From: Guyanagaster necrorhizus
Lineage: Eukaryota; Basidiomycota; Agaricomycetes; Agaricales; Physalacriaceae
Direction of reading: 5' to 3'
DNA length: 64,000 bases
Assembly (NCBI RefSeq): GCF_019112545.1
Contig: NW_025064891.1
Span: 585,311-649,310, forward strand
The notes beneath the pieces were generated by a model that worked only from the letters and a program-made list of their open reading frames with translations, searched no databases and was not told the DNA's origin. Positions 16,854-54,014 of the stretch are shown here, piece by piece. Numbering within the stretch: position 1 is the stretch's first letter; each line of letters opens with the position of its first letter. The position numbers and the translations under genes are program-made.

Positions 16854-17001
16854 ATGGGAAGTGGCCAGAGTCCAGTGGGTAGTGTGATTAGATTCATGGT
16901 TAGTGAAGGTGACACAGAGGCCAGCAGCATGCATGTAACAGTATCTCTCCCTTAGCATTCTTATCCTCAAGAGCACAGATCCTGATAGCTGGTGGGGCCA
17001 C

Positions 17002-18385: not shown

Positions 18386-18561
18386 AGATTTGTATGAAAT
18401 GTATATAGAAAGGCATTGAATGTTGGTAGTGGAAAAAGAAAAATGTAATTATAAGATTTTGACTTTGAAAGTATGAATAGAGTGATCAAAATAGTAGTAA
18501 TCAGTTGTTAAAATTGATATAGTAAGGTGGGGCACCAGTGGTGTCTGGAGTAGTGTTGTAT

Positions 18562-21500: not shown

Positions 21501-21818
21501 ACAGATGAGGATGGTTGTGATTTGAGATATATAGCTCCTGATAGAGCCATCAAATAATCGAAGTTGCACACTAGAGATGGTTTTAATGGGAATTTCATTG
21601 GCAGCTACATACTTAGTGTCAACAAAGCAGTAGCTAGAGCTAGAATCAATAAGGGCAAAAAAACACAGAATGATACAAGTTGGAGAACCATTGGGTTCCA
21701 TAGTGGTCAGTAATTCTGCTGAGAGGGGAATGTGGAAGGAGTGATTAGAAAGAGATGTTGTGTTGAGAGTGATGATCTCCAGTGTGCAAATAGAGTCAAT
21801 GCAACCCTGAACTCACAT
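18562..21818 (-). pseudogene. B1 pol (protease, RNase H, integrase, chromodomain; RT core deleted)
   Basis: From the ATG-like codon at 21818 to the TAA at 18564-18562 is 3257 nt, exactly 616 nt shorter than B3 pol (3873 nt). The missing block corresponds to B3 48905-49520, which holds the RT palm motifs; the sequence jumps from ...SHSPH to FIH-Y-D-VIPLT near 20740. Protease [20 protein letters not shown] (~21600-21665), RNase H (YDTHDKKLLAIFEAFKHWWH, ~20400-20460), integrase (ITSDCSSEFVSQF ... ANRQTEQANQ, ~19370-19490) and the chromodomain region (FEIAQIFDSKLDH, ~18740-18780) remain. It could not have moved itself after the deletion. Confidence 0.87.
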
Positions 21819-21838
21819 AGAGAGAACAGGGTTGCTTT

Positions 21839-23265
21839 CTAGTTTTCTGACTCTGTCAAGGCTGGTTCTACAGGAGTAGTGTCAACTTCAGCTGTATAAC
21901 TCTTGGCAGAGGCCACTGTCTTCCACTTGTTGCAATCCTTGATCTTGTGTTTGGCTCCACAGAACATGCAAAGGTTGTTCTGGCACTGGTGGTCTTTTTC
22001 TTTCTGAGTAAGACAGCCATCTTTGCCTAGCTTATCAGCATAGGGCTTAGAGGTGGTAGATTTCTGTGTGAAGCTGGAGTCTGAGGAAGAAGTGTTAGAC
22101 TTCTTGGATTTGAGGTTGAGGGATTTATTCTCCTAGTTTTCATGGGTAATTTCAGTCTTCCAGATCTAGTAGCAAGCATCAAGTTCTTGGGCAAGGAAGC
22201 ACATATCATGAAGGTTGTTTGGTTTCCCATAGTGTGCCATGTCATCCTTAATACAGGTGCAGAGGCCATAGTAAAAGACATAGTAGAGGGAGTTATCTCT
22301 GTACTCAATTTGTGAAGCATACTGGTTGAATTGGACCATATACTTTATGATCCAATCTCTATTGTGCATCCAAAGATGTTCTAATGCATCTTCAGCATCT
22401 CTAATAGCATCAAAGGGGCTGAAGTTGCTACAAAGCTCATCTAGGAAAGCTGCATAAGAGAATTGCCAGGCTGGTGGATTCTGTGGATTGGGGTTAAGAA
22501 TGTCTGGTTTGAACCAGTTAAGCATGATGCTGGCCAGGAATAAAATGGCATAGTTAACCTTATTAGCATCTGTTGCAAATGCAGTAGGTCTATTGTTGAA
22601 GTTCAACTGAAGGGAGACAATAAAAGCCTTCAGTTTGTGAGGGTCAGCACCATCAAGTGGTTCCAGTTTCTTGACTTTGGTATAGATAGTGGCTGGTTTA
22701 GGGTTGTTGAGAGAAGTGAAGACTCCTCATAACAGATTCATGAATTCTAAGAACATGTCCTGCTGGTTTGGATTGTTACTTCCTACAGGGCTATCAGAGC
22801 TACCTGGGCCATTGGGACCATCTAATCCTCCTGGCTCTCCTGGTCTATCTGAAAAAGGGTTTGATGGATTACCACCTGGTTCCTGTCAGATGGGAGTATG
22901 AGTAGGGGTGTCTTCATCTCTGCTCTCTGAGTCTGAGCTATCTGGATTCCCATGCATATTGCTCAGAGATAAGGGGTCTATTGGGGGGTTGGTTTGAGCA
23001 CCATACATCAGGCTCCATTAGTTGGAATGTTGGTGGCATTGAAAGAGTTAGAGAAATCATCATAATTAGGTTGGCAGGCAGTGAAGCTAGAGTGATTGTA
23101 GGTTTTCCTATGGGAAGGTTGTCCTCCACTGGAGGCCAATCTGAAAAGGTCTGGTTGTTTCTTTGAGGCAGAGGCCAGAATGTCTTCTATGAAAAACATG
23201 TTTGGATGGATGAGCTGAGTTTGTTCAGGATCAGTTTCTGTGGATTCGGTAAATATAGTGGATAT
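21839..23265 (-). pseudogene. B1 gag
   Basis: Same organisation as B3 gag: N-terminal Ser/Asn-rich region (EDILASASKKQ), Gly/Pro-rich linker, retrotransposon gag capsid core (LNWFKPDILNPNPQNPPAW, QFSYAAFLDELCSNF, YGLCTCIKDDMAHYGKPNN) and a zinc-knuckle-like NNLCMFCGAKHKIKDCNKW. The start codon is ATA (23265-23263) where B2 has ATG; the stop TAG is at 21841-21839. It is 13 nt shorter than the other copies and has scattered stops. Confidence 0.85.
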
Positions 23266-23304
23266 AATAAAATTTTTGACTCAAGGGTTTGAGTTTGAAT
23301 ATAC

Positions 23305-23791
23305 TGTTAGGAACATGCCAATCAAGTGGGCTTGAATGCACACACAGAGTTTGGCAGAGTGCATGGACATCAATAAAGCTATTGGCAACATCACTCTTGA
23401 GTTAGAGCCTAAGGATCTGGATGAACAGAACAGAGTTCCATCAGAGAATGTCCTTCAGAGCAGAATCTGATGGATGAGATAGGAAGGAGTTGAAGTGAGT
23501 GTGAAGTGTAAATAGCTTATCCAAGTTGATATTCAAACTGAGTAGTTACAATGATATATATGACTTTATATACTAATGGTAGCTAATTCTGAGTCGAGTT
23601 TCATTGGGTTCCAGTGTCAATATTCACTACTGAGTTCAAAGTCTAGATATTACAATGTGAAATACAGATGTGAAATGGTAATAGTGAAATGAAATTAGTA
23701 GATAATAGGAAGTGGCTGAAGTCTGATGGGTAGCATGATTGGATTCATGGTTGGTGGAGGTGACACAGAGGCCAGCAGCATGCATGTAACA
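23305..23791 (-). repeat. B1 5' LTR
   Basis: 487 bp, TGTTAGGAAC...ATGTAACA in plus-strand view, followed by the ATTGG duplication. It is shorter than the 3' LTR mainly because of a ~13-bp deletion near 23445. Confidence 0.9.
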
Positions 23792-24622
23792 ATTGGGCAC
23801 AGAAAGCTTTGCACTCTGGCTCTGGGTTTGTGTTTGTAACTTCAGGTGAGAGAATAAATGTATTATTAAACATCTTAGAGAGAGCTGTGAGAACTAAGTG
23901 AGGCATCAAAGCTCGCAAAGGACTTGAGCCTGGTTTGATAAGAGGTTTTGGATTGTGCTCTAACCTGAGAATAAGAGAGCAGTGTCTGAAGGATGCTATC
24001 TTGAGTTTTTGAGGTATTTGTGACACATGGTGCTACAGAGGACAGAGGTTCAAACCCTTTGGTCTGTCAGATAGTGTTTTATTGTGTTTTGTGTCTCTGA
24101 ATCATATAGGTTTGAATCCTATAGATCTACAATTGGTTTGGAAACTTGTGAACAGAGATCTATGCTCTTTAGCACTTGTGGACATGTTTGTGATTGGTTT
24201 TTGCTTAGAGCATAAAGCTTTGAGTCATGTATTGTGTGTGTTAGAGATTTTGAGGTGATCTGAGCTAAGCTTAAGACTTTTTGGAGAGTTTTATGAAAGT
24301 GTTTCAATGTATTGTATTGAGCTGCAGTACCCTTTGCCTTGAGATCCAGCAACACCTGTTGCCACCTCTTGTTCTGATAAAATGAAAAGCCTTGAGACCT
24401 AGAGAGACCTCAGACTGTTGTAAGCATACTATTACTGTTCATGCACTGTGATCTCATTGAAGAGGACAATTATATTTGTTGATTACTACTTTTATCACAT
24501 TATAATCCCTCTATGAACTAAGAGTTTTGTGTGTGTGTGTTGGTGTGAGTGTGGTCAGTGGATAAAGCTCCACTGTATTCGTTTTTACCTTGTGCACACT
24601 CAGATTCTCTTCATTGGCTATA

Positions 24623-27600: not shown

Positions 27601-27985
27601 GTGCATAACCTGAGATTTCCATAAATGGAATCAATAAATTGCTCTGTCTCTGAACCATGAACAGGAACTAAAGAAGGAAGGAGGATTAATCTATTATGAT
27701 AGGCAGTTCTATATTACTAGAGATCAAAGACTCCATGGTGATATCATCATCACATGCTATAATCATGTGACAGCTGGTCATCCAGACATTGCCAAGATGA
27801 AAGAGCTTGTATTATAGGAATATTGGTGGCCCAAAATGGATCATAATATCACCTGATATGTCAAAGCTTATGAGGTTTGTCAATGAGGCAAATTCTCAAC
27901 ATGACCTCAGATCATACCACTGCATCCAAATGAAATACTAATAGCACCATGGATCCACATCTTAGTGGATATGATGATAGGACTT
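24623..27985 (+). pseudogene. Gy-A1 gag C-terminus and pol up to the integrase core
   Basis: Continues gag (DYFNELEWLSKLARVHDDI) after insertion X. A zinc knuckle at 25037-25078 reads CFNCGQKGYMA.NC, with Tyr where the His ligand is expected (CAT to TAT). Then protease (VLIDSSCTGSSIN, ~25700-25745; DSG has become DSS), RT ([42 protein letters not shown] ~26770-26800, EYLGVIISEG), RNase H (ADSSEGTIRAVLSQEQ), and the integrase zinc region (HVTAGHPDIAKMKELV, YWWPKM, ~27765-27840). The frame is cut after ILVDMMIGL by B2 and resumes at 35999 with PESDGYDAIIII. Many stops; about half replace Arg or Gln/Trp codons. Confidence 0.85.
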
Positions 27986-28529
27986 TGTCACATGCATGCC
28001 ACCAGCCTCTATGTCATCTCAACTAACCATAAATCTAATCACACTACCCACTAGACTCCAGCTGCTTCCTATTACCTACTAATTTCATTTCACCATTATC
28101 ATTTCACATTCGTATTTCACATTGTAATATCTAGACCCTGAACTCAGTAGTGAATACTGACACCAGAACCCAATAGAACCCGACTTGGAATTAGCTACCA
28201 TTAATATATAAAGCCATGTATATCATCATAACTACTCAGTTCAAATATCAACTTGGATAAGCTATCTACACTTTGCACTCACTTCAACTCCTCCATACAT
28301 CATCCATCAGATTCCACTCTGAAGAATATCCCAGTTTACTTCTCTAATAGAACTCCATTCTATCCCTTCTGATCCTTGGGCTCCAACTCAAAGGTGACAT
28401 TGCCAATAGCTTCATTGATGCCCATGCACTCTGCCAGACTCTGTGCATACACTCTGCCAGACTCTGTGCATGCACTCTGCCAGACTCTGTGCATGCACTC
28501 AAGCCCACTTGATTGGCATGGTCTTAACA
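27986..28529 (+). repeat. B2 5' LTR
   Basis: 544 bp, TGTCACATGCATGCC...GGTCTTAACA. About 46 bp longer than the 3' LTR because of two extra copies of a 23-bp unit at 28427-28495. Confidence 0.9.
28427..28495 (+). repeat. Three tandem 23-bp units in the B2 5' LTR
   Basis: Units at 28427-28449, 28450-28472 and 28473-28495 (CACTCTGCCAGACTCTGTGC + ATG), nearly identical. The other Gy-B LTRs, including this element's own 3' LTR, have a single unit at this place. Confidence 0.93.
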
Positions 28530-28568
28530 GTATATTCAAACTCAAACTCTTGAGTTGAAAATTTTATC

Positions 28569-30008
28569 ATGTCCACCACATTTACTGAACCCACAGAAAC
28601 CAATCCTGAACAAACCCAGCCCACTTATCCAAATATGTTTTCTATAGAAGACATTCCAGCCTCTGCCTCAAAGGAACAATCAGGCCTTTTTGGATCAGCC
28701 TCCAGTGGAGGACAACCTTCCTATAGAGAAACCTACAATGACTCTAGCTTTACTGCCCGCTAACCTAATTATGATGATTCCTCTAACTCTTTTGATGCCA
28801 CCAGTATCCCAACCAATGGGGTCTGATGGGCCAGTCTGATGTATGGTGCCTGAACTGACCCCTCAATAGACTCCTTATCTCTGAGCAATATGTATGGGAA
28901 TCCAGATAGCCCAGACTCAAAGAGCAGAGATGAAGACACCCCTACTTATACTCTCATCTAATGGGAACCAGGTGGCAATCTACCAAACCCTTTTCCAGGT
29001 AGACCAGGAGAACCAGGAGAATCAGGTGGTCCCAATGGCCCAGGCAGCTCCAATGGCCCCACAGAAAGTAATAATCTAAACCAGCAGGACATGTTCCTAG
29101 AATTCATGAACCTGTTATGAGGAGTCTCTGCTTTCCTCAACAACCCTAAACCAGCCACTATCTATACCAAGGTCAAGAAACTAGAACTATTTGATGGCTC
29201 TGACCCTCACAAACTGAAGGCTTTCATTGTCTCCCTTCAGTTGAACTTCAATGACAGACCTACCACATTTGCAATAGATGCTAACAAGATTAACTATCCC
29301 ATTTCATTCCTGGCCAGCACTGCACTTAACTGGTTCGAATCAGATATTCTTAACTTCAATCCATGGAATCCACCAGCCTGGCAATTCTCCTATGCAACTT
29401 TCCTAGATGAGCTTCATAGCAACTTCAGCCTCTTTGATGCTATCAGAGATGCTGAAAATGCATTAGAACATCTTTGGATGCACAATGGAGATTGGATCAT
29501 AAAGTATATAGTCCAATTCAACCAGTATGCTTCACAAATTGAGTACAGAGATAACTCCCTCTACTATGTCTTTTACTATGGCCTCTGCACCTGTATCAAG
29601 AATGATATGGCACACTATGGGAAGCCAAATAACCTTCATAATATGTGCTTCCTTGCCCAAGAACTTGATGCTTGCTACTAGACCTGGAAGACCAAAATTG
29701 CTCATGAAAACTGGGACAATAAATCTCCCAACCCCAAATCTAAGAAGTCTAACACATCTTCCTTGGACTTCAGCTCTACACCTAAATCTATCACCTCTAA
29801 GTCCTATGCTGATAAGCTAGGCAAAGATGGCTGTCTTACTTAGAAAGAAAAAGACTGCCAGTGCCAGAACAACCTTTGCATGTTCTGTGGAGCCAAACAC
29901 AAGACCAAGGATTGCAACAAGTGGAAGGCAGTGGTCTTTGCCAAGAGTCATACAGCTGAAGTTGACACTACTCCTGTAGAACCGGCCTTGACAGAGTCAG
30001 AAAACTAG
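28569..30008 (+). pseudogene. B2 gag
   Basis: 480 codons including the stop, the same length as B3 gag. This copy keeps the likely true start ATG (28569; MSTTFTEPTETNPEQTQP), which is ATA in B1 and B3. Order: Ser/Thr-rich N-terminus; Gly/Pro-rich collagen-like linker (PGRPGEPGESGGPNGPGSSN); gag capsid core from KVKKLELFDGSDPHKLKAF to AHYGKPNNLHNMCFLAQEL; zinc-knuckle-like LCMFCGAKHKTKDCNKW; TAG at 30006-30008. Internal stops, mostly at Arg, Trp or Gln positions, make it non-functional. Confidence 0.88.
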
Positions 30009-30028
30009 AAAGCAACCCTGTTCTCTCT

Positions 30029-33000
30029 GTGTGAGTTCAGGGTTGCATTGACTCTATTTGCATACTGGAGATCATCACTCTCAATGCAACATCCCTCTCC
30101 AATCACTCCTTCCATGTTCCCCTCTTGGCAGAATTACTGACTACTATGGAATCCAATAGTTCCCCAACTTGTATCATTCTACGTTTTCTTGCCCTTATTG
30201 ATTCTGACTCTAGCCACTGCTTTGTTGACACTAAATATGTAGCTGCCAATGAAATTCCCATTAAAACCATCCCTAGTGTGCAACTTCAATTATTTGATAG
30301 CTTCTTTGGGAGCCATATATCTTAAATCACAACCATCCCCATCTGTTTCCTGTTCAGAGATACCTTCTCCATCGACTTCTATGTCACCTCTCTGGATTCA
30401 TCTTGCAATCTTGTCCTAAGATATAACTGGCTCTCCCACTACAACCTACTGATTGACTGAGCTGAGAATAGTATTATTTTCTGCTCAAGCTACTAGGATC
30501 TCACTCTAATCAATTTCGTGGCCTTCACTACATCCCAGAGACTTCTGTGCCCACAGTACAACAGTCCACCTCTCTCTGAGCCTTTCAGCTCAAATCCAGG
30601 ACTTCCGTGCCCACCAGACTCTATCAGTCTAACTCCAGGGGCTTTACCCTATTCTAAATCAACTCTGGGTAACTGGCAGACTCTGTTCTCATATGAACTC
30701 ATCTACTCCTATCCTCTCTCAGAGTCTTTTACTATGAAAGCACATTCAAAGATCTCTATCATATCTGCTGCCATATTTGTCTGAGCCAGTGCAGAAGAAG
30801 GTGCTCAGCAGTTCATACTGTAGTCTTCTTTGCCTAATATTGGAGCTAAAGCCGCATCTGCAGAACCAGCAGATCTTTTATCAGTGCTAGTAGAGTACCA
30901 TGATTTTGCAGATGTCTTCAGTGATACCCTCTTTGAAAAACTACTCAAACATAGGCCATACAACCTCAAAATCAACCTTGAGGAAAGAACCTCTCCACCA
31001 CTTGGACCTATTTATTCTGAAGGCCCTATGAGAGTTTATTGATGATAATCTATGCAATGGGTTTATTACTTTGTTCTGCCCTTCACACAGGGCTCCAGTT
31101 CTATTTGTCAAGAAAAAGACTAGTGAACTCTGACTTTGCATCGACTACTGTAGCCTAAACAAAATCTCCAAGAAAGATCGCTATCCTCTTCCTCTCATTT
31201 CTGATCTCTTTGACTCTGCTCACTCTATGTGCATCTACACCAAGCTCAACCTTTGGCATGCATACCATTTTGTCTGCATAGCTAAGAGGGATGAATGGAA
31301 AACAGCCTTCTAGACTCATTACAGTTCCTTCGAATGGCATGTCATGCCTTTTGGCCTCACAAATGCTCCAGCAGCATTCTAATGATTTGTAAACAATATA
31401 TTCTCTGACATGCTCAACATATCAGTAGTAGTCTACCTTGATAACATCCTCATATATTCCAACAATCTGAAAGATCACCAGAAACATGTTTATGAGGTCC
31501 TATGCAGGCTTAGAGCTAACAGACTCTACTGCAAAGATTCCAAATGCAAATTCAACTGGGACTCCGTGGAGTACCTAGGCTATATCCTATCATCTGAAAG
31601 ACTTTGCATGTCTGAAGAAAAAGTCAAGGCCATTGTTGACTGGCCAGTGCTGTGAAAAGTCAAGAACATCCAATTCTTCTTTGGCTTTGCCAACTTCTAC
31701 TGTTGCTTCATACACAGATATAGCAACATCGTCATCCCTCTTACTCGACTCACCTACAAGGGAACTCCATGAAAATTTGACAACAAATGCTTGGCTACCT
31801 TCAATGAATTAAAAGAGGTCTTTACACATGCTTCTATCCTTACTCACTGGGTTCCCAATCAAAAGATAGTGGTGGAAACTGATGCCTCTAATTATGCTAT
31901 CATAGCTATTCTCTTCATCTACCTTGAAGATGGTGAAATTCACTTGATTGCATTCCACTTCCAGAGCCTCTACAATGCTGAACTCAACTACAACATCTAT
32001 GACAAGGAACTCCTAGCCATTTTTGAAGCTTTTAAACATTGGCGACACTACCTTGAAGGCTCCATGGACTCCATCGATATTATAACAGACCACAAAAACC
32101 TTGAATACTTCACCACCACTAAGATTCTAACCTGCTGACAAGTCTGCTAGTCTGAATACCTATCCTAGTTTAATCTAGTAATTTATTTCTGCCCTGAAAA
32201 ACTTGGTGAAAAACCAGATGCACTCACTAGATGATGAGACATCTACTCTAAAGAGAGAGATAGCTAATATGCTCAAGTCAACCCCCACAATTTCTGACCT
32301 GTGTTCACCCAAGAACAACTTTTCATATTACTCCATGCAATCTACCTTGAAGGCTCTACTCTCTGAGCCAGCACCATCATGGACATTGACAAGCTCCACA
32401 CCAATATCAAACAAGCACAATCTTCTGACTCTACATTCTCTGATGGCCTCTGCCAGGCTAAGGCCACTTCAGAATCCTCTTCTTCTTAGTGGTCCATTGA
32501 TGAATCAGACATCCTCTGCTTTGAAGGCCACATCTACATCCCAGAGTCTAGAGATCTCCATCTCCATATACTACAAAACAATCATGACCACATCTTAGCA
32601 GGCCACTTTGGTCAAAACTGGATATTGAAACTAGTCTGGCAGAACTATACTTGGCCAAAGATGCACAAATACATCTGATACTATGTCAAGTCCTGTGCAG
32701 TTTGTGGACACAATAAGGCACCTAGACACTGCCCCTATAAGTTACTCAAACCTCTGCCAGTTTCTGAATGGCCATGGGATTCCATTTCCATGGACTTCAT
32801 TGAACAACTATTAGACTCCAACAGATTTACCACTATCTTAGTAGTCATAGACCAAACTAGCAAGCAAGCCATCTTCATTCCCACTCATGACACCATCAAC
32901 TCTGTAGAGCTAGCCCAACTTTTTCTTATCTATGTATTCTCCAAACATGGGGTACCCAGTCACATCACATCTGACTGCAGCTCCAAATTCATCTCCCAAT

Positions 33001-33884
33001 TCACTTGCACCTTAGTTGTGGCCTTTGACATGGAACTCCACCTTATCTCTGATTATCATCTGGAGGCCAATGGACAAACAGAATGAGCAAACCAAACTCT
33101 GGAACAATACATCCACATCTACTGCTCCTACCAGCAGGACAACTGGGACACCCTTTTACCTATTGCTGAATTTGCCTACAATAATGTCTCTAATGTGTCC
33201 ACCAGAATTTCCCTATTTTTTGCTAACAAGGGTTACCACCCCAACATCACTGTTCACCCTGAAAGAGACATCACCTCTGCCCAGGCCTGAGATTTCACAG
33301 TCAATCTTGATGAACTCCATCAATTACTGAAGAATGAAATTTCCAAAGCTCAGTCTTGCTACAAGATCCAAGCAGACAAGCATTGGATTCTGGCACCCTT
33401 GTTCACAGTAGAGGACAAGGTTTACCTCAGCTCCAAACATATCAAAATCATCCATCCAACCAGAAAATTTTCAGAGAAATATCTTGGTTCCTTTGAAATC
33501 ATAGTCTAACCTGATACCCACTCCTTTACTCTGAGGCTTCCACTGGATCTCCAGTCTATTCACTCCATCTTCCATGTGTCACAATTAGAACCCATAGAAG
33601 AAAACACCATTCCTAACCAAATCCAACCACCACTGCCTCTAGTCGAAGTCAATGGAGAAGAACATTTTGAAATAGCCTAAATCCTTGACTCTAAACTGGA
33701 CCATTGGTTCTGCTGCCCACTGCTATACAAAATCCAGTGGCTAGGATATGAAGATACTAATGAAGAATCTGCTTAGTTATTGGCCTCTGAGTTCTCTGCT
33801 GATGAATTTATTAAAGAATTCCACCACTGATACTCAGGCAAATCAGGACCCTTGTCCAAAGTCATTCAAACATCCCATTCCTAA
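30029..33884 (+). pseudogene. B2 pol (PR-RT-RNase H-IN-chromodomain)
   Basis: 3856 nt, 17 nt less than B3; the difference is one deletion between 31014 and 31023 (LSESELKAL lost). The start codon is GTG here (ATG in B1 and B3). Motifs: protease LALIDSDSSHCFVDTKY (DSG to DSD); [14 protein letters not shown] and VVYLDNILIYSNNLKDH (YxDD to YLDN); RNase [28 protein letters not shown]; integrase HILAGHFGQN, CAVCGHNKAPRH, DFIEQLLDSNRFTTILVVID, ITSDCSSKFISQF, ANGQTE; C-terminal chromodomain YKIQWLGYEDTNEESA. More than 15 in-frame stops. Confidence 0.9.
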
Positions 33885-34053
33885 TATAATGCTACTCTGG
33901 ACATCTTACCATTTCAATTCTAACCACTAATTACCACCATTCAATCATTCCTTCTATACTTTCAAAGTCAAAAATTTTTTTTTTGCATTTACATTTTCTT
34001 TTTTCCACTACCAACATTCAATGCACTTCTATATACATTTCATACAAAAAATT

Positions 34054-35434
34054 TTACAAAGAAGTGGAATCCAACAGGCCCACACCAGAACCTAAACTCT
34101 CCTCCTGCTCCTTCAACTCCTCTATATCCTTGTTCAACTCCTTCAACATTGCTTTCTGAAGATCCTCCACCTCCTGATCCCTCTCATCCTTGAAAATCAG
34201 TCAGGCCTTCTTTCAGGCCTCCATCTCAGACTCTGAAAATAGCTCTAAAGAAGATAACATATTATCGGAACCATAGTTGTCTTGAAGACCTGCCACAGTA
34301 TTGTGAACATCTGCCACCTCATTTGCTAACTCATCCACATGATGCATCAACTTGCATATCAATTTTGAAAGTTGATGGAGACCAGTGGAGACCTCCATAC
34401 TGCTGATCACCTCATTCGCAGTGATGCTCTTGTTGAACGAACAGGCAGTTTTCTTGATCTTGCAGTGAGAGCAAGTCTGCCCTTGACTGGCACCTTCAGT
34501 TACCAGTTGTGTATAACACCATGCACCATCTTGATGACAGTGCATATAACTCTCTGAAAACAAAAGCTAAGTCAAACCAAACAAGAAAACTAAGACACTT
34601 ACTTTCACTATCTAACAAATCTTCACCCTCTGCTGATTCTGCCACTTCCAACTTTGCCCACTTCTTGGGGCTAACAACCACCTCTGTCCTACTGCCATCC
34701 ACTATGCTCCTTGACCTGAACTTGCATTTACAGCTCTTTTCCGCTGGACCTATTGCCCTTCTCTTCCCCTCCCACACTCTCTTTCTCCTCTCCAGAGTCC
34801 CCTCAGATTCTTCAGACTTATTGTCCCTCTCAGTTCCCTTATCCTACTCACTATTGGACTCTGAAAGCATATGGTGAGCCACCTTCTTGAAGTGAAGACT
34901 GAGGCTAGGACCAAACTGTTCCACCAACACTCAATACAGCCAAAAATCAACAGCCTCTACAGGGGTTATTTGTAATCCATCCTCCATAACTATCCCCTCT
35001 GGCTCTACCTCTGAGATCTCAGCTCTTGCTGCAGCATCCACAGCCTCTCTCTCCTCAGTCTCTCTCTGAGCTGCCTCTCTCAATGCCTTCTCTGCCTCTT
35101 TCATTCATCTCTCTACAGCATTCTGGACCTTCTCCCTCTTCCTCTCCAATTCCTCCTCCTGCTCCTTTTTCCATGCCTTCCAAGCCAAATGGTCTGCCTG
35201 GACCTTCTCCTCCTGCTCTCACTCCCCTTGCCATTCCAAATGGCTCTCCATAGCCTCTGCATATTCTTTCTCTGCAGCTTGCCATTTTAGACAAAACAAT
35301 TCCTTGGCCTCTTCAGAGCCATCAGGAGTGGATCCTCTCACCAGAGGCTCAGGAGTGCATGAGTGACAATATAGGTGATGATAGTGGTTTCAGATCAAGC
35401 TACAAAACTCCCATGACCATCAACAATCTTCTAT
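34054..35434 (-). pseudogene. B2 antisense gene: coiled-coil / Cys-cluster protein with one intron
   Basis: Opposite strand to B2 gag-pol, tail-to-tail with pol (about 170 bp apart). Intron 34602-34554 (49 bp, GTAAGT...TTTTCAG). Exons total 1332 nt (444 codons) from the ATA (formerly ATG) at 35434 to the TAA at 34056-34054. After the intron: CMHCHQDGAWCYTQLVTEG then CSHCKIKKTACSFNKS, giving C-X2-C-X6-C twice with 14 residues between. Then HQLSKLICKLMHHVDELA and VADVHNTVAGLQDNYGSDNM. Upstream: Glu/Arg coiled coil and VVSPKKWAKLEVAE (basic patch). Several stops at former CGA or TGG codons. Confidence 0.78.
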
Positions 35435-35495
35435 ATGGTCCCACCAGCCATCAGAATCTGCACTCTTGAGGGTAAGAACACTAAAGGGGGGATAC

Positions 35496-35993
35496 TGTCA
35501 CACACATGCTGCTGGCCTCCATGTCACCTCAACCAACCATGAATCCAATCATGCTACCCACTAGACTCCAGCCACTTTCCATTACCTACTAATTTTATTT
35601 CATCATTATCATTTTATATCTGTATTTCATATTGTAATATCTAGACCCTAAACTCGGTAGTGAATACTGACACCAGAACCCAATAGAACTCGACTTGGAA
35701 TTAGCTACCATTAGTATATAAAGCCATGTACATTATCATAACTACTCAGTTTGAATATCAACTTAGATAAGCCATCTACACTTCACACTCACTTCAACTC
35801 CTCCATACCTCATCTGTCGGATTCTGCTCTGAAGGATATCCTGGTTTGCTTCTCTAACAGAACTCCATTCTGTCCCTCTTGATCCTTGGGCTCTGACTCA
35901 AGAGTGATGTTGCCAATAGCTTCATCGATGCCCATGCACTCCACTGGACTCCACATATGCATTCAAGCCCACTTGATTGGCACATTCCTAACA
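35496..35993 (+). repeat. B2 3' LTR with polypurine tract
   Basis: 498 bp, TGTCACACACATGCTG...CACATTCCTAACA. The polypurine tract AAAGGGGGGATAC (35483-35495) lies directly before it. TATATAAAG-type box near 35720. Confidence 0.92.
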
Positions 35994-35998
35994 GACTT

Positions 35999-45535: not shown

Positions 45536-45828
45536 GCCATCAGAATGATAGTTTTAAGGAGGAGGTAATGTTATAATTTTCTTTCTTTTATTCTTCTTTT
45601 TCTGAATTAATCTCTATTTATGCTTAGTCAGAGTGCCTAAACTAACACTTAGGATCATGAGAGAAGCTTAGTCATCATAAATAAGCCAATCCATCATTGT
45701 TTTCTGACATAGTGATCAGCCCTTGACAATACACAATCAATCTTTTGTGTATAGTAGCAATGCTCAAGGATAATGGACACAAAGACTTGACAACAAATAA
45801 TAGATAGTCTTATATTTATCTATGCTAT

Positions 45829-46326
45829 TGTTATGTGCATGCCGCTGGCCTCTATGTCACCTCAACCAACCATGAATTCTATCACGCTACCCACCGGACT
45901 CTGGCTGCTTCCTATTACCTACTAATTTCATTTCACCATTATCATTTCACATCTGTATTTCACATTGTAATACCTAAACCCTGAACTCGGTAGCGAATAT
46001 TCACACTGGAACCCAATGGAACCCGACTCGGAATTAGCTACCATTAGTATATAAAGCCATGTATATCACTGTAACTACTCAGTTCGAATATCAACTTGGA
46101 TAAGCCACCCACACTTTGCACTCACTTCAACTCCTCACTATCTCGTCTGTTGGATTCTGCTCCAAAGAACATTCCAGTTCACTTCTCTGACGAATCTCCA
46201 TCCTGTCTATCCAGATCCTTAGGCCCCGACTCAAGGGTGACATTGCCAATAGCTTTGTCAACACCCACGCACTCCACCAGACTCTGTGAGTGCACTCAAG
46301 CCCACTCGATTGGCACGTTCCTAACA
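45829..46326 (+). repeat. B3 5' LTR
   Basis: 498 bp, TGTTATGTGCATGCCG...GGCACGTTCCTAACA. Same length as the 3' LTR. Confidence 0.95.
46048..46055 (+). promoter_or_regulatory. TATA box of the Gy-B LTR
   Basis: TATATAAA in the 5' LTR, conserved at the same place in the B3 3' LTR (~53521) and in the B2 LTRs. It is the likely core promoter for the genomic RNA, with transcription starting downstream inside the LTR. Confidence 0.55.
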
Positions 46327-46366
46327 GTATATTTGAACTCAAACCCTTGAGTTGAAAAATTTTATC

Positions 46367-47806
46367 ATATCCACCACATTTACCCAATCCACAGAAACTG
46401 ATCCTGAACAAACCCAGCCTACCCATCCAAACATGTTTTCCATGGAAGACATTCTGGCCTCTGCCTCAAAGAAACAACCAAGCCTTTTCGGATCAGCCTC
46501 CAGTAGAAGACAACCTTCTCGTAGAGAAACCTACCATCACTCTAGCTTCACTATCCACCAACCTAATTACAACAATTTCTCTAACTCTTTCAATGCCACC
46601 AGCATCCCAACCAATGGGGCCTGATGGGCCAGCCTGATGTATGGTGCCCAAACTGACCCCCCAATAAACCCCTTATCCCTGAGCAACATGCATGGGAACC
46701 CAGACAGCCCAGACTCAGAGGGCAGAGATGAAGACACTCCTACTCATACTCTCATTTGACAGAAACCAGGTGGCAATCCACCAAACCCTTTTCTAGATGG
46801 ACCAGGAGGACCAGGTGGACCAGGTGGTTCGAATGGCCCAGGTAGCTCTGATGGCCCCACAGGAAGTAATAATTCAAACCAGCAGGACATGTTTCTAGAA
46901 TTCATAAATCTGTTATGAGGAGTCTCTGCTTCTCTCAACAACCCTAAACCAGCCACCATCCATACCAAGGTCAAGAAACTAGAACCATTTGATGGCTCTG
47001 ACTCTCACAAACTGAAGGCATTCATTGTCTCCCTTCAGTTGAATTTCAATGACAGACCTACTGTGTTTGCAACAGATGCCAACAAGGTTAACTACACCAT
47101 TTCATTCCTGGCTGGCACTGCACTTAACTGGTTCAAACCAGACATTCTTAACCCCAATCTGCAGAATCCACCAGCCTGGCAATTCTCCTATGCAGCTTTC
47201 CTAGATGAGCTTCATAGCAACTTTGGCCCCTTTGATGCTATCAGAGATGCTGAAGATGCATTAGAACACCTTCAGATGCATGATGGAGATCAGATCATGA
47301 AGTATATGGTCCAATTCAATCAGTATGCTTCACAAATTGAGTACAGAGATAACTCCCTCTACTATGTCTTTTACTATGGCCTCTGCACCCATATCAAGGA
47401 TGACATGGCACACCATGGGAAGCCAAATAACCTTCATGATATGTGCTTCCTTGCTCAAGAACTTAATGCTCGCTACTGGACCCAAAAGACTAAAATTGCT
47501 CATGAAAACCGGGACAATAAATCCCCTAACCCTAAATCCAAGGGGTCTAACATGTCTTTCTTGGACTCCAGCTCCACACCAAAATCTACCACCCCTAAGC
47601 CCTATGCTGACAAGCTAGGCAAAGATGGCCATCTTATTCAGGAAGAAAAAGACCGCTGGCACCAGAATAACCTTTGCATGTTCTGTGGAGCTAAACACAA
47701 GACCGAGGACTGCAACAAGTGGAAGACAGCAGCCTCTGCTAAGGGTCGTGCAGCAGAAGTTGACACTGCTCTTGTGGAACCAGCCCCAACAGAGTCGGAA
47801 AACTAG
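46367..47806 (+). pseudogene. B3 gag
   Basis: 480 codons including the stop; start ATA (ATG in B2), stop TAG 47804-47806. N-terminus with EDILASASKKQPSLFGSAS; Gly/Pro-rich linker (PGGPGGPGGSNGPGSSDGPT); capsid core LNWFKPDILNPNLQNPPAWQ, FSYAAFLDELHSNFGPFDAI, NQYASQIEYRDNSLYYVFYY, LCTHIKDDMAHHGKPNNLHD; C-terminal NNLCMFCGAKHKTEDCNKWK. That is C-X2-C-X3-H-X4-C, one residue shorter than a standard retroviral zinc knuckle. The last 256 codons (from 47039) are uninterrupted; the upstream half has a few TGA/TAG codons. Confidence 0.9.
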
Positions 47807-47826
47807 AAAGCAACCCTGTTCCCTCC

Positions 47827-50800
47827 ATGTGAGTTCAGGGTTGCGTTGACTCTATTCGCACACCAGAGGTCATCACTCTCAATGCAACATCCCTTTCCAA
47901 TCACTCCTTTCACATTCCTCTCTCAGCAGAATTACCGACTGCTATGGAACCTGATGGTTCCCCAACTTGTATCATTCTACGTTTTCTTGCCCTTATTGAT
48001 TCTGGCTCTAGCTACTGCTTTGTTGACACTAAGTATGTAGCTGCTAATGAAATTCCCATTAAAACCATCTCTAGTGTGCAACTTCGATTATTTGATGGCT
48101 CCATCAGAAGCCATATATCTCAAATCGCAACCATTCCCATCTGTTTTCCATCTGGAGACACCTTCTCCATCGACTTTTATGTCACTCCTCTGGATTCATC
48201 TTGCAATCTTGTCCTAGGATACAACTGGCTCTCTCACTACAATCCACTGATTGACTGGGCTGAGAACAGTATCATTTTCCATTCAAGCTACCAGGACCCC
48301 ACTCCAACCAATTCTGCAGCCTCCATCACATTCCAGGGACTTCTGTGTCCATAGAACAATAGTCCACCCCTTTCCAAGCCTTCCAGCTCAATTTCAGGAC
48401 TTCCATGCTCATCGGACTCTATCAGTCCAACTTCCAGGGCTTCACCTCATTCCAAGTCCACATCGGGTAGCCGGCAGACTTTATTCCCATATGAACCCAT
48501 CTATTCCTATCCTCCCTCAGAATCTTTTACTATGAAAGCACACCCAAAGATCTCCATCATATCTGCTGCTGCATTCATCCAAGCCAGTGCAGAAGAAGAC
48601 ACCCAGCAGTTCACACTGCAGCCTTCTTTGTCTAATATTAGAGCCAAAGCCATATCTGTGGAACTGGCAGATCTTTCATCAGTGCCAGTAGAGTATCACG
48701 ATTTTGCAGATGTCTTCAGCGATACCCTCTCCAAAAAACTATCTGAACACAGACTATATGACCTCAAAATCAACCTTGAGGAAGGGACATCTCCACCACT
48801 TGGACTCATTTATTCTCTCTCAGAATCTGAACTCAAAGCCCTATGAGAGTTTATTGATGATAATCTGCGCAATGAGTTCATTACTCCATCCCACTCTCCA
48901 CATGGAGCTCCAGTTCTATTCGTCAAGAAAAAGACCGATGAACTCTGACTTTGCATCGACTACCATGGCCTAAACAAAATCTCCAAGAAAGATCGCTACC
49001 CTCTTCCCCTCATTTCTGATCTCCTCAACTCCGCCTGCTCTGTGCGTATCTACACTAAGCTCAACCTTTGGCATGCCTACCATCTTGTTCACATAGCTAA
49101 GGGGGATGAATGGAAAACAGCCTTCTGGACCCGTTACAGTTCCTTCAAATGGCACATCATGCCCTTTGGCCTCACAAATGCTCCAGCGGCATTCCAACGA
49201 TTTGTGAATGATATATTCTCTGACATGCTCGACATATCAGTAGTAGTCTATCTCAACAACATCCTCATATATTTCGACAATCTGAAAGATCACCAGAAAC
49301 ATGTTCGTGAGGTCCTACACAGGCTTAGAGCTAATGGACTCTACTGTAAAGATTCCAAATGCGAATTCAACCGGGACTCTGTGGAGTACCTAGGCTACAT
49401 CCTATCACCTGAAGGACTTCGCATGTCTGAAGAAAAGGTCAAGGCCATTGTTGACTGGCCAGTGCCATGAAAAGTCAAGGACATCCAATCCTTCCTCGGC
49501 TTTGCCAACTTCTACCATCGCTTCATACATGGATATAGTGACATTGTCATCCCCCTTACATGACTCACCCGCAAGGAAACTCTATGGAAATTTGATGACA
49601 AATGCTTGGCTGCCTTCAATAAATTGAAACAAGCCTTTACACATGCTCCCATTCTTACTCACTGGGTTCCCGATCAAAAGATAGTGGTGGAAACCGACGC
49701 CTCCAATTATGCCATCACAGCTATCCTCTCCATCTACCTCAAAGATGGCAAAATTCACCTGATTGCATTCTGCTCCCGGAGCCTCCACAATGCTGAACTC
49801 AACTACAACATCCATGACAAGGAGCTTCTGGCCATTTTCAAAGCTTTTAAACATTGGTGGCACTACCTTGAAGGCTCTGCAGACTCCATCAATGTCATAA
49901 CAGACCACAAAAACCTTGAATACTTTGCCACCACTAAAATTCTAACTCACCGACAAGTCCACTGGTCTGAATACCTATCCCAGTTCAACCTAATAATTCG
50001 TTTCTGCCCTGGAAAACTTGGTGGAAAACCGGATGTGCTCACTAGATGATGGGATGTCTACCCTAAAGAGAGGGATAGCCAATATGCCCAAGTCAACCCC
50101 CACAATTTCCGACCTGTGTTCACTCAAGAACAACTTTCAGTGTCACTCTATGCAACCTACCTTAAAGGCTCTACCCTCCGAGCCAGCACCATCATGGACA
50201 TTGACAAGCTCCACATCAATATCAAACAAGCACAATGTTCTGACCTTATGTCCTCTGACAGTCTCCACCAGGCTAAGGCCACTTTAGAATCCTCCCCCTC
50301 TCAGTGGACTATTGATGAATCAGACATCCTCTGCTTTGAAGGCTGCATCTATGTTCCAGAGTCTAGAGATCTCTGTCTCTGTATACTACAGAACAATCAT
50401 GACCACATCTTGGCAGGCCACTTTGGTCAAAATCAGACATTGGAACTAGTCCAGCGGAACTATACCTGGCCAAAGATGTGTGAATATGTCTGACACTATG
50501 TTAAGTCCTGCACAGTTTGTGGGTGCAATAAGGCACCTAGATACCACCCCTATGGGTTACTCAAACCTCTGCCAGTTCCCAAATGGCCATGGGATTCTAT
50601 TTCCATAGACTTCATTGAACAACTACCAGACTCTAATAGATTTACCGCTATCTTAGTAGTCATAGACCGAGCTAGCAAGCAAGCCATATTCATTCCCACT
50701 CATGACACTATCAACTCCATAGAGCTAGCCCAACTTTTTCTTATCCATGTATTCTCCAAACATGGAGTATCCAGTCATATCACATCTGACTGTGGCTCTG

Positions 50801-51699
50801 AATTTGTCTCCCAATTTACTCGCACTTTAGCCATGGCCCTTGACATGAAACTCCACCTCACCTCTGGTTATCATCCAGAGGCCGACGGACAAACAAAACA
50901 AGCAAACCAAACCCTGGAACAATATATTTGCATCTACTGCTCCTACCAGCAGGACAACTGAGACACCCTCTTACCCATTGCTGAATTTACCTACAACAAT
51001 GCCTCTAATGTGTCCACCGGAATCTCCCTATTTTTTGCTAATAAGAGTTACCACCCCAACATCACCGTTCATCCTGAAAGGGACATCGCCTCCATTCGAG
51101 CCCGAGATTTCACAGTCAATCTTGATGAACTCCATCAATTACTGAAGGATGAAATTTCTGAAGCTCAGTCTCGCTACAAGACCCAAGCAGACAAATATCG
51201 GATTCCAGCACCTCCATTCACAGTAGAGGACAAGGCCTACCTCAGCTCCAAACATATCAAAATCACCTGCCCAACCAGAAAATTTTTGAAGAAATACTTT
51301 GGTCCTTTCAAAATCATAGTCCAACCTGGTACCCACTCCTTTACTCTGAGGCTTCCACTGGATCTCCGGTCCATTCACCCTGTCTTCCATGTGTCACAAT
51401 TGGAACCCATAGAAGAAAACACCATTCCTAATCGAATCCAACTATCACTGCCTCCAGTCGAAATCGATGGAGAAGAACATTTTGAAATAGCCTAAATCCT
51501 CGACTCTAAACTGGACCACCAGTTCCGCTGCCCACTGCTGTACAAAATCCAGTGGCTAGGATACGAAGGTACCAACAAAGAGTTTGCTTGGTTATCAGCC
51601 TCCAAGTTCTCTGCCGATGAATTTATTGAAGAATTCCATCATCGATACCCAGGCAAACCAGGACTCTTGTCCAAAGTCATTCAAACATCCCATTCCTAA
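47827..51699 (+). pseudogene. B3 pol: protease, RT, RNase H, integrase, chromodomain
   Basis: 1291 codons including the stop, in the -1 frame relative to gag, beginning 20 nt after the gag stop with ATG then TGA (probably CGA). Domains: aspartic protease [20 protein letters not shown] (intact DSG, ~47990); [55 protein letters not shown] (YxDD to YLNN, ~49243-49275); RNase H VVETDASNYAI, ELLAIFKAFKHWWHYLEG, TDHKNLEYF; integrase NNHDHILAGHFGQNQ, CTVCGCNKAPRY, DFIEQLPDSNRFTAILVVID, ITSDCGSEFVSQF, YHPEADGQT; C-terminal chromodomain YKIQWLGYEGTNKEFAWLSA. About ten in-frame stops, at least six at conserved Arg positions (CGA to TGA), others from CAA, CAG or TGG. Confidence 0.92.
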
Positions 51700-51844
51700 T
51701 ACAATGCTACTCTGGACACCACTAGCCCCCACCTTACCATTTCAATCACTTTTACACTTTCAAAATCGAAATCTTGTATTTACATTTCTTTTCTCTACTA
51801 CCAACATCCGATGCCCTTTCTATATATATTTTATACAAAAGATT

Positions 51845-53240
51845 TTACAAAGAAATGAAACCTGACAGGCCCACACTGGAACCTGAACTCTCCTCCCGCT
51901 TTTTCAACTCCTCTATATCCTCGTCTAGCCCCTTCAACATCGCCTCCTGAAGATCCTCCACCTTCTGATCCCTCTCATCCTTGAAAATCAGTTGGGCCTT
52001 CTTTTAAGCCTCCACCTCAGACTCCGAAAACAGCTCCAAAGGAAACAACATATCATCAGAACCATAGTCATCTTAAAGACCTGCCACAGTACCATGAACA
52101 TCTGCCACCTCATCTGCCAACTCATCCATGTGACATATCAACTTGCATATCAATTTTGAAAGTTGGTGGAGACTGGCAGAGACCTCCACACTGCTGATCA
52201 CCTCACTCACGGTGATACCCTTGTTGAACAAACAGGCAGTTTTTTTGACCTTGCAGCGAGAGCAAGTCCACCCTCGACCGGTGCCTTCGGTCACTAGTCA
52301 TGCATAACACCGTGTGCCATCTTGACGACAATGCACACAACTCCCTGAAAACAAAAGCTAAGTTAAGCCATAGAAGAAAACCAAGATACTTACTTTCACC
52401 ATCCAACAATTCTTCACCCTCCACCAGCCCTGCCACTTCCAACTTCACCCGCTTTTTGGGGCTAACGATCGCCTCTGTCTCATTGTCATCCACTATGCCC
52501 CTCGACCTGAACTTGCATTTACATCCCTTCTCCACTGGAACTGCTGCCCTTCTCTTTCTCTCCCACACCCTCTTCCTCCTCTCCAGGGTCCCCTCAGATT
52601 TCTCGGACTCATTGTCCCCCTCAGTCTCCTTTGCCTGCTCATTATTGGACTCTGGAGGCATATGGCAAGTCACCTTCTTGAAGCGAAGACCAGAGCCAGG
52701 ACTATACTGTTCTGCCAAAACTTGATGCAGCCAAAAATCAGTGGCCTCCATGGGGGTCATCAGCAACCCATCCTCCATAACCATCCCCTCTGGCTCTACC
52801 TCCTCAGCCTCAGCCCTCACTGCCACCTCCATGACCTCCCTCTCCGCAGCCTCCCTCTCCTCAGCTGCCCTCTGAGCCACCTCTCTCAATATCTCCTCTG
52901 CCTCCTTAGCCCACCTCTCTGCAGCTTGCTGAACCTCCTCTCTCTTCCTCTTCAATTCCTCCTTCTGCTCCTTTTTCCATGCCTCCTGGGCCACATGGTT
53001 TGCCTGGACCTTTTTCTCCCACTCTTGCTCCCTTTGCCATTCCAAATGACTCTCTACAGCCTCTGCGTATTCTTCTTCCACGGCCTCCCATTCTAGATGA
53101 AACAATTCCTTGGCCTCTTCAGGGCCATCAGAGGTGGATCCCCTCACCAGAGGCTCGGGAGTGCATGAGTGACGACATAGGTGATGATGGTAGTTTCAGA
53201 TCAAGCTACAAAACTCCCATGGCCACCAACAATCCTCCAT
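51845..53240 (-). pseudogene. B3 antisense gene: coiled-coil, NLS-like, Zn(II)2Cys6-like protein with one intron
   Basis: Opposite strand to gag-pol. ATG 53240-53238, intron 52393-52345 (49 bp, GTAAGT...TTTTCAG), TAA 51847-51845; 1347 nt of exon, 448 aa. Order: short Cys/Trp-rich N-terminus (MEDCWWPWEFC); EEAKELFHLEWEAVEEEYAE and a long Glu/Arg/Ala coiled coil (residues ~45-145); a conserved MTPMEATDFWLHQVLAE motif; acidic GDNESEKSEGTLERRKR; CKCKFRSRG; basic SPKKRVKLE (nuclear-localisation-like); after the intron CVHCRQDGTRC-X14-CSRCKVKKTAC; then DELADEVADVHGTVAGL and an acidic coiled tail. The 945 nt from GTG 53147 to 52203 are open. It is broken only by codon 15 TGA, a TGA after RCYA, a TAA near the end of the ADVHGTVAGL block and one after SEVEA. 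I do not recognise a named family; the Cys spacing resembles fungal Zn(II)2Cys6 factors. Confidence 0.82.
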
Positions 53241-53301
53241 GTGGCTCCACTGGCCATCAGGATCAGCACTCTTGAGGGCAAGAATGCTAAGGGGGGGATA
53301 C

Positions 53302-53799
53302 TGTTACACACATGCTGCTGGCCTCCATGTCACCTTAACTAACCACGAATTCTATCATGCTACCCACTGGACTCCGGCCGCTTCCCATTACCTACTAATT
53401 TCATTTCACCATTATCATTTCACATCTGTATTTCATATTGTAATATCTAGACCCCAAACTCGGTAGTGAATACTGACACCAGAACCCAATAGAACCTGAC
53501 TCGGAATTAGCTACTATTAGTATATAAAGCCATGTATATCACTATAACTACTCAGTTTGAATATCAACTTGGATAAGCCACCCACACTTTGCACTCACTT
53601 CAACTCCTCACTATCTTGTCCATTGGATTCTGCTCCAAAGAACATTCCGGTTCACTTCTCTGATGAATCTCCATCCTGTCCATCCAGATCCTTGGGCCCT
53701 GACTCAAGGGTGATGTTGCCAATAGCTTTGTCGATGCCCACGCACTCCGCTGGACTCTGCGAGTGCACTCAAGCCCACTCGATTGGCATATTCCTAACA
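53302..53799 (+). repeat. B3 3' LTR with polypurine tract
   Basis: 498 bp, TGTTACACACATGCTG...GGCATATTCCTAACA. Preceded by AAGGGGGGGATAC (53289-53301). Followed by GCTAT. The antisense gene starts only 61 bp upstream of this LTR, so its promoter may lie in the LTR read on the opposite strand. Confidence 0.94.
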
Positions 53800-54014
53800 G
53801 CTATGTATAGTATATAAGAAGGCTTGCTTTTACTGGAAAATTCTCAGCTTCAAGCTAAAATTTATCTTCACACTATTACACTCTTAAGCCAATCCTAAGG
53901 CCTTGAAGCATACCAATCAACAGTCACATAAAGTAAACTCTGATGTTCCACTCAAAGTGCAAAATGATGTCAGTTTATCATGTGTCTATGATCATGTGTG
54001 ACTTGGGTCTAACA

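What the first reader, a model, noticed from the sequence alone, without database searches (positions are those of the whole stretch)
51845..53240. A spliced gene carried antisense inside an LTR retrotransposon, conserved in three copies
All three Gy-B copies carry, between pol and the 3' LTR and on the opposite strand, a gene of 444-449 codons (B1 17002-18385, B2 35434-34054, B3 53240-51845). Each has one intron at the same place with a GTAAGT donor and a TTTCAG/TTTTCAG acceptor (52, 49 and 49 bp). In each case exon length is a multiple of three from the same start position to the same stop position. In the element's genomic RNA this intron is read backwards and cannot be spliced, so it survives reverse transcription, by the same logic as antisense-intron reporters. 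This suggests a gene expressed from its own antisense promoter, possibly captured from a host. Antisense accessory genes are known in a few plant gypsy elements; I know of no described equivalent in a basidiomycete chromovirus.
Basis: partly seen in the sequence, partly recalled or inferred. Interest (0 to 1): 0.88.

Follow-up and report, generated by a model that had tools for sequence, protein, structure and literature searches.

The report
Spliced antisense gene in fungal retrotransposon
A family of fungal jumping elements carries, written backwards between its own genes and its right-hand end, an extra gene with an intron whose protein looks like a dimeric zinc-binding regulator; similar proteins occur in Armillaria fungi, and the three copies in this window are decayed remains of that gene.

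Summary
The geometry is confirmed: B1, B2 and B3 each carry, antisense between pol and the 3' LTR, two exons around a 49-52 base GTAAGT...CAG intron. But these three copies are pseudogenes (11, 8 and 4 internal stops) and the proposed start is wrong (B3: 53178). Elsewhere in the genome at least 150 exon-2 copies exist (capped list); 114 of 150 lie convergent to pol at 151-217 bp. Of 42 copies read, all keep GTAAGT, intron length varies 49-53, and 7 are open from a conserved ATG to the stop after splicing. Intron-bearing junctions: 162; intronless: 0. Every named homologue (39% identity, same architecture) is from Armillaria, in a multi-copy family whose gene models disagree exactly at this junction. 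The protein, a coiled coil plus a C-x2-C-x6-C-x14-C-x2-C-x6-C cluster and a second coiled coil, is most likely a nuclear DNA-binding regulator (inferred). Precedents: plant aORF-3R genes, HTLV HBZ/APH, and brtn in the Botrytis element Boty; hence a new variant of a known kind. Expression and splicing are untested.

The parts
45828..53800 (+). Element B3 (Ty3/gypsy, Tf2-1-like integrase C terminus), carrier of the finding
   Evidence: self-comparison and copies; gag and SH3_Tf2-1 Pfam hits in window
45828..46327 (+). B3 5' LTR
   Evidence: 90.4% identical to 3' LTR, 47 of 48 differences transitions
53302..53800 (+). B3 3' LTR
53289..53299 (+). Polypurine-tract-like run just before the B3 3' LTR
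   Evidence: sequence
53521..53529 (+). TATATAAAG in the 3' LTR (sense core-promoter candidate; palindromic TATATA also reads on the gene strand)
   Evidence: sequence; function not tested
51010..51699 (+). B3 pol C-terminal part (SH3_Tf2-1, chromodomain-like tail with one internal stop), pol stop at 51697-51699
52394..53178 (-). B3 antisense gene, exon 1 from the conserved start region (coiled coil and basic stretch); N terminus out of frame, 17 bases absent
52345..52393 (-). B3 intron, 49 bases, GTAAGT...TTTTCAG
51845..52344 (-). B3 antisense gene, exon 2 (zinc-cluster-like motif and coiled coil), 3 internal stops, terminal TAA 51847-51845
52232..52339 (-). B3 region of the six-cysteine cluster (coordinates derived by hand; broken by a stop in B3)
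   Evidence: pattern in other copies; six cysteines invariant in 15 of 15 rows of A3
27985..35994 (+). Element B2, nested in another LTR element
34054..35372 (-). B2 antisense gene: exon 1 35372-34603, intron 34602-34554, exon 2 34553-34054; many stops
15046..23793 (-). Element B1 (contains 985 N at 15730-16714)
17064..18385 (+). B1 antisense gene: exon 1 17064-17833, intron 17834-17885, exon 2 17886-18385; many stops

Best explanation
It is a resident accessory gene of a large chromovirus-type Ty3/gypsy family, placed tail-to-tail with pol on the opposite strand. A transcript started in or near the 3' LTR, reading back into the element, is spliced at one short intron and gives a protein of about 430 residues: MS..Y..S..PEP N terminus, long charged coiled coil, basic stretch, six-cysteine zinc-cluster-like motif, second coiled coil. 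Because the intron lies backwards in the genomic RNA it is not removed before reverse transcription and is inherited. The protein is most likely a nuclear, dimeric, nucleic-acid-binding regulator of the element's own expression or integration, working like HTLV HBZ/APH or plant gene23. Shown: anatomy, fixed place, conservation, intron inheritance. Inferred: splicing in vivo, promoter, nuclear place, DNA binding, target.
For: At least 150 exon-2 copies in the genome (capped list); 114 of 150 have pol's end convergent at 151-217 bp, none in the same orientation within 1.5 kb; 55 of the 58 best-scoring pol copies have it, the other 3 not in the capped gene list. Donor GTAAGT 42 of 42, intron lengths 49-53 (30, 1, 6, 4, 1 copies) while exon frames stay matched; 7 of 42 copies open ATG to stop after splicing, 6 of them with intron lengths not divisible by three. 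Gene frame has 0.34 and 0.69 stops per 100 codons in exons 1 and 2 against 1.2-6.4 and 2.1-5.9 in the other five frames, and the lowest dN/dS in each distance class. Armillaria homologues: P0001 E 1.4e-22 with the exon-2 part, 39% identity, same N terminus and all six cysteines; 26 proteins, the 23 named ones all Armillaria (four species names); their gene models diverge exactly at the intron, one with 16 extra residues. 162 intron-bearing junctions, 0 intronless. Long helix after the cluster, pLDDT 84-94 by blocks of ten.
Against: No RNA data: splicing and antisense transcription are unproven. Within-family selection is only partly shown: dN/dS in bins of dS falls with distance in the gene frame (0.63 to 0.25), but the two shifted control frames of exon 2 fall too (0.99 to 0.48, 0.89 to 0.63), so that trend is partly an artefact. 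A transversion-only count, free of the deamination bias, supports exon 2 (columns shared by two or more copies, by codon position 4/0/11, p 0.002 uncorrected; all such columns 10/6/17, p 0.06) but not exon 1 (7/10/7, p 0.69); the pol control had no power (4/2/5, p 0.53). No Pfam match above cut-off; PDB gave nothing for exon 2 and only weak coiled-coil matches for the profile; the cluster region is modelled with pLDDT under 50 and Foldseek found nothing, so DNA binding rests on motif spacing. The strand of the Armillaria genes relative to any element is unknown. 35 of 42 copies read are broken or incomplete.
Confidence: 0.72

Rival explanations
1. The antisense RNA itself, not the protein, is what matters: antisense transcription from the 3' LTR silences or tunes the element and the reading frame is a relic.
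For: Most copies read are broken (35 of 42); a regulatory role of antisense RNA in retroelements has been proposed (PMC7264820, passages).
Against: Stop depletion in exactly one of six frames and lowest dN/dS there, cysteines invariant across two genera, matched frames despite varying intron length. Stops look post-insertion: 80 of 83 are one C>T/G>A step from a codon present in another copy, and the commonest one is scattered on the tree.
Confidence: 0.12
2. A host gene (zinc-cluster regulator) was captured and is carried as cargo, without function for the element.
For: A spliced gene inside an element; gene transduction is known for retroviruses and some class I elements (PMC7264820, passages).
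Against: Fixed place at 151-217 bp from pol in 114 of 150 hits, with exon-2 copies diverged down to 64% identity, and a multi-copy family in a second genus point to long residence; no single-copy host homologue came up. Useless cargo would be expected to decay over such divergence.
Confidence: 0.1
3. There is no intron: the stretch is translated or the frames are joined by frameshifting.
For: In one open copy the 51-base stretch reads through in frame, and in a diverged subfamily (L049, L051, L052) a stretch of 48 bases is in frame.
Against: 36 of 42 copies have lengths not divisible by three; donor invariant in 42 of 42; P0001 aligns continuously across the junction, and unspliced reading runs into another frame with no match to the homologues.
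Confidence: 0.04
4. The open frame is a by-product of base composition or of a sense-strand gene.
For: Sense-strand frames opposite exon 1 are also rather open in some copies.
Against: Over 42 copies the sense frames carry 1.2-2.4 (exon 1) and 2.1-4.5 (exon 2) stops per 100 codons against 0.34 and 0.69, and the homologues are in the antisense frame.
Confidence: 0.02

Closest known systems
brtn of Boty (Botrytis cinerea; Zhao et al. 2011, Virology 417:248; paper not seen, only citation and passages in PMC7264820, PMC8365987, PMC4227169)
   Same: Fungal Ty3/gypsy element with gag-pol including a chromodomain and an extra antisense gene; [quoted passage not shown]
   Different: Ascomycete host; whether brtn is spliced or has a zinc cluster could not be checked, and its sequence was not compared. 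No named hit is from Botrytis.
Plant antisense aORF-3R genes: maize Grande gene23, rice RIRE2, Retand TRP28 (PMC7264820, PMC11963269; passages)
   Same: Antisense, between pol and 3' LTR, present in most copies, protein of unknown function with nuclear localisation (gene23) or predicted DNA binding (TRP28); gene23 has its own upstream promoter.
   Different: Host kingdom; TRP28 is a separate Pfam domain (PF04195) that did not come up here; Retand is non-chromoviral; the word intron does not occur in either main text.
HTLV-1 HBZ and HTLV-2/3/4 APH genes (PMC10186651; passages)
   Same: Antisense genes expressed from the 3' LTR with spliced transcripts; HBZ is a nuclear protein with bZIP features, APH-3/4 suppress 5' LTR-driven transcription.
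   Different: Animal retroviruses, unrelated protein; HBZ splicing changes the 5' end of the coding sequence, here the intron lies deep inside it.
Fungal Zn(II)2Cys6 transcription factors (PF00172)
   Same: Six cysteines spaced C-x2-C-x6-C ... C-x2-C-x6-C followed by a coiled coil (architecture recalled); a UniRef name for homologue P0007 says Zn(2)-C6 fungal-type.
   Different: Middle loop of 14 residues, longer than usual (recalled), no Pfam hit, cluster far from the N terminus.

Membership tests
[quoted passage not shown]
   Window copies; 114 of 150 gene hits convergent with pol end
Antisense accessory gene between pol and 3' LTR (aORF-3R) | Present in all or most copies with coding conservation | tested here: met
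   55 of 58 best-scoring pol copies; frame test
Antisense accessory gene between pol and 3' LTR (aORF-3R) | Transcribed from an antisense promoter | not testable with these tools
   No RNA data; only a TATATAAAG noted in the LTR
Chromovirus (chromodomain Ty3/gypsy) | gag, PR, RT, RH, IN of a Ty3/gypsy element | tested here: met
   Pfam hits in L040 and L041
Chromovirus (chromodomain Ty3/gypsy) | Chromodomain at the pol C terminus | tested here: inconclusive
   Chromo 19.9 bits, E 7.2e-4, below the cut-off 25.1 in L040; not listed for L041 or the B3 piece at E 0.01; chromodomain-like tail in B3 by eye
Zn(II)2Cys6 family (PF00172) | Match to the Pfam profile | tested here: not met
   No hit in exon 2 nor in the 8 Armillaria homologues scanned of 27 found
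Zn(II)2Cys6 family (PF00172) | Six cysteines with two C-x2-C-x6-C halves | tested here: met
   All six invariant in 15 of 15 rows of A3; several Armillaria models in A4 lack part of it
Spliced antisense regulator of HBZ type (works like) | Antisense spliced transcript encoding a nuclear coiled-coil protein acting on LTR transcription | not testable with these tools
   Intron and coiled coil predicted; expression and action unknown
brtn homologue | Sequence similarity to BRTN | not tested
   BRTN sequence not at hand; no named Botrytis protein among the hits

The most novel reading that the evidence does not exclude
An ancient family of mushroom-lineage chromoviruses carries a spliced antisense gene for a zinc-cluster coiled-coil transcription factor that binds the element's own LTR: a fungal counterpart, arisen independently, of the HTLV HBZ circuit, kept across at least two fungal genera and possibly the source of Zn-cluster proteins annotated as host genes.
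Probability: 0.3. Interest if true: 0.8.

Novelty: new variant of a known kind. Interest (0 to 1): 0.6.

Why it matters
It would add a basidiomycete, spliced and zinc-cluster case to the antisense genes of plant elements, Boty and HTLV, suggesting that LTR elements repeatedly evolved antisense regulators. The natural antisense intron gives a built-in marker: intron-bearing DNA copies come from genomic RNA, so strand and splicing can be read from ordinary genome and RNA data. More than two dozen proteins, the named ones listed as uncharacterised or hypothetical in Armillaria, may be retroelement genes.

Tried and rejected
'Basidiomycete' is inferred from the Armillaria matches. Homologues in IMG/VR and GTDB contigs: none. 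PDB by sequence: nothing for exon 2; profile A4 gave 13 weak matches, best E 0.046, coiled coils such as GCN4 fusions among them; a 48-residue cluster query gave one hit, E 1.9. Structure: two AlphaFold2 runs left the cluster under pLDDT 50; Foldseek found nothing. Considered and rejected: an inherited leaky UGA in exon 2. Sixteen of 42 copies have TGA at one codon, but they are scattered on the tree, so repeated deamination is the simpler reading. The tree print labels the 17-base difference wrongly for some copies; one search gives the count used. First pol control for selection included non-pol flanks and was redone with 28 of 31 sequences; it lacked power. Two junction patterns were one letter too long (both zero) and replaced. 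Scripts stopped with errors after partial output; only the printed part is used. A survey of fungal Tcn1-like chromoviruses (PMC2864245, passages) has no occurrence of 'antisense' or 'additional ORF'.

Full report
What is in the window. Three copies of one Ty3/gypsy family lie at 15046-23793 (B1, minus strand), 27985-35994 (B2) and 45828-53800 (B3), with LTRs of about 500 bases. But none of the three is an intact gene. In the stated frame B1 has 11, B2 8 and B3 4 internal stops, all three with one at codon 15. The start seen in the other copies, and in Armillaria (MSx..Y..S..PEP), is 62 bases further in (B3 53178). The three window copies lack 17 bases near that start, between short direct repeats, and so begin out of frame; 12 of 42 copies are like this and 30 are not. 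The 12 sit on several branches of the tree, so the loss looks recurrent.

The element. Pfam finds Retrotrans_gag/Ty3_capsid, RVP_2, RVT_1, RT_RNaseH, Integrase_H2C2, rve and SH3_Tf2-1 in copy L040, most of these in L041, and gag and SH3_Tf2-1 in B3 itself. The chromodomain match is below the curated cut-off (19.9 against 25.1 bits, L040) and not listed for L041, though the end of B3 pol looks like one by eye. A purine run and TATATAAAG of the LTR are at 53289-53299 and 53521-53529.

The gene in the genome. A DNA search gave 40 scored copies of 256 first-look candidates; exon-2 protein gave 150 matches, the cap, from 100% down to 64% identity, 31 of 150 without internal stops by my count of the table, one of these in a frame so long that it must include unknown bases. 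Of the 150, 114 have the pol C terminus on the opposite strand 151-217 bp away (median 187) and none has pol in the same orientation within 1.5 kb; both lists are capped at 150, so the 36 unmatched genes are not shown to lack pol, nor the 36 unmatched pol hits to lack the gene. Of the 58 best-scoring pol copies, 55 have the gene in convergent position. Of four 3-kb stretches of diverged copies read (L049-L052), three show the same tail-to-tail order by my reading of the frames and one is interrupted by another copy.

The intron. Among 42 copies (40, which include B3, plus B1 and B2) GTAAGT is present in 42; lengths are 49 (30 copies), 50 (1), 51 (6), 52 (4) and 53 (1). The copies were found with a query that spans the intron but does not require it. 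Seven of the 42 are open from an ATG at the conserved start to the terminal stop after splicing, with introns of 49, 49, 49, 51, 52, 52 and 53 bases: the exons stay in phase although the intron length drifts. A diverged subfamily has 48 bases (L049, L051, L052). A search for the joined exons, one mismatch allowed, finds 0 places; the intron-bearing junction finds 162, with reversed-pattern controls 0; the joined pattern would have matched 38 of 42 spliced copies and the other matches 40 of 42. This fits an intron that cannot be spliced from genomic RNA; it would also fit an intron that is never spliced, so it is not proof of splicing.

Coding evidence. In the gene frame stops are 0.34 (exon 1) and 0.69 (exon 2) per 100 codons; in the other five frames 1.2-6.4 and 2.1-5.9. 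Pooled dN/dS is lowest in the gene frame in every distance class (0.44-0.50 exon 1, 0.35-0.46 exon 2; other frames 0.55-0.98 and 0.44-0.97; the frame at 0.44-0.54 has 4.5 stops per 100). In bins of dS the gene frame falls from 0.63 to 0.25, but shifted control frames of exon 2 also fall, from 0.99 to 0.48 and 0.89 to 0.63, so the trend counts for little. The ratios are distorted because decay is almost all transitions: of 389 differences between the two LTRs of ten elements, 384 are transitions. A transversion-only count supports exon 2 (4, 0, 11 shared columns at positions 1, 2, 3; p 0.002, uncorrected; all columns 10, 6, 17, p 0.06), not exon 1 (7, 10, 7); with 28 copies exon 2 is 4, 0, 10 and the pol control 4, 2, 5, without power. 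Copies are related, so none of these p values is a strict probability. The conservation between genera is the stronger evidence.

Homologues. Searches of 5.8 billion proteins gave 1, 4 and 26 hits, 27 different proteins; 24 carry a name, all Armillaria (A. ostoyae, A. solidipes, A. borealis, A. novae-zelandiae), and three (P0010, P0017, P0019) have none. In two of the three searches only the candidates sharing most words were scored, and the window's own or near genomes may not be shown. P0001 aligns from the first methionine through the coiled coil, basic stretch and cluster at 39% identity and has roughly 150 more residues at the C end. In alignment A4 the Armillaria models disagree exactly at our splice junction: P0017 has 16 extra residues there, several drop the first part of exon 2, P0010 and P0019 begin inside exon 2. 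The many diverged copies per species are as expected of a mobile element gene, but their relation to pol is unknown.

The protein. Exon 1 is a charged coiled coil with a basic end (by composition); exon 2 has C-x2-C-x6-C-x14-C-x2-C-x6-C and long helices 51-94 and 107-151, the first with block pLDDT 84-94. No Pfam match above cut-off and no convincing PDB relative. One UniRef name reads Zn(2)-C6 fungal-type (P0007). Cluster plus coiled coil resembles, by recalled architecture, dimeric fungal zinc-cluster regulators; the profile test fails, so membership is not claimed.

Mechanism. I think the 3' LTR, or the leader of about 120 bases between it and the ATG, drives an antisense mRNA that is spliced and yields a nuclear regulator, in the manner of HBZ/APH (PMC10186651, passages) or gene23 (PMC7264820, passages). 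These steps are inferred. I give 0.9 to a real protein-coding antisense gene, about 0.85 to splicing and about 0.4 to an LTR- or chromatin-binding regulator.

Novelty. Plant aORF-3R genes and Boty's brtn are in print; PMC7264820 names Boty of Botrytis cinerea and Sclerotinia sclerotiorum among non-plant cases (passages), and PMC4227169 describes a Boty-like element with chromodomain gag-pol and brtn (passages). Ten searches of the open-access library showed no basidiomycete case in the listed titles and abstract starts; not every matching paper was listed and subscription papers are missing. New here, as far as seen: an intron inside the coding sequence of a fungal antisense retroelement gene, the six-cysteine protein, the fixed tail-to-tail place in over a hundred copies, and the Armillaria family.

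Noticed in passing
LTR pairs of B2, B3 and L031, L033, L034, L035, L037, L039, L040, L041: 384 of 389 differences between paired LTRs are transitions; the C lies in CpA (205) or CpG (127) in most: a RIP-like or methylation-deamination decay. LTR divergence is therefore a poor clock here.
   Followed up: partly
antisense gene start, B3 53178 and copies: 12 of 42 copies lack 17 bases between short direct repeats at the gene start and lie on several branches of the tree, so the loss seems to recur, perhaps during reverse transcription.
   Followed up: partly
exon 2, one codon within the cysteine cluster: 16 of 42 copies share a TGA at the same codon but not as one clade; probably a deamination hot spot.
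   Followed up: yes
window 25163-27985 and 35994-37016: B2 is inserted inside another LTR element whose pieces recur at 41693-45517 and 58648-62338.
   Followed up: no
window 15730-16714: 985 N inside the 3' LTR region of B1: an assembly gap.
   Followed up: no
P0001 and other long Armillaria homologues: Many Armillaria homologues have a conserved C-terminal extension of about 100-150 residues absent from this genome's gene.
   Followed up: no
L049, L051, L052: A diverged subfamily has a 48-base intron that reads in frame, so unspliced translation would also be possible there.
   Followed up: partly
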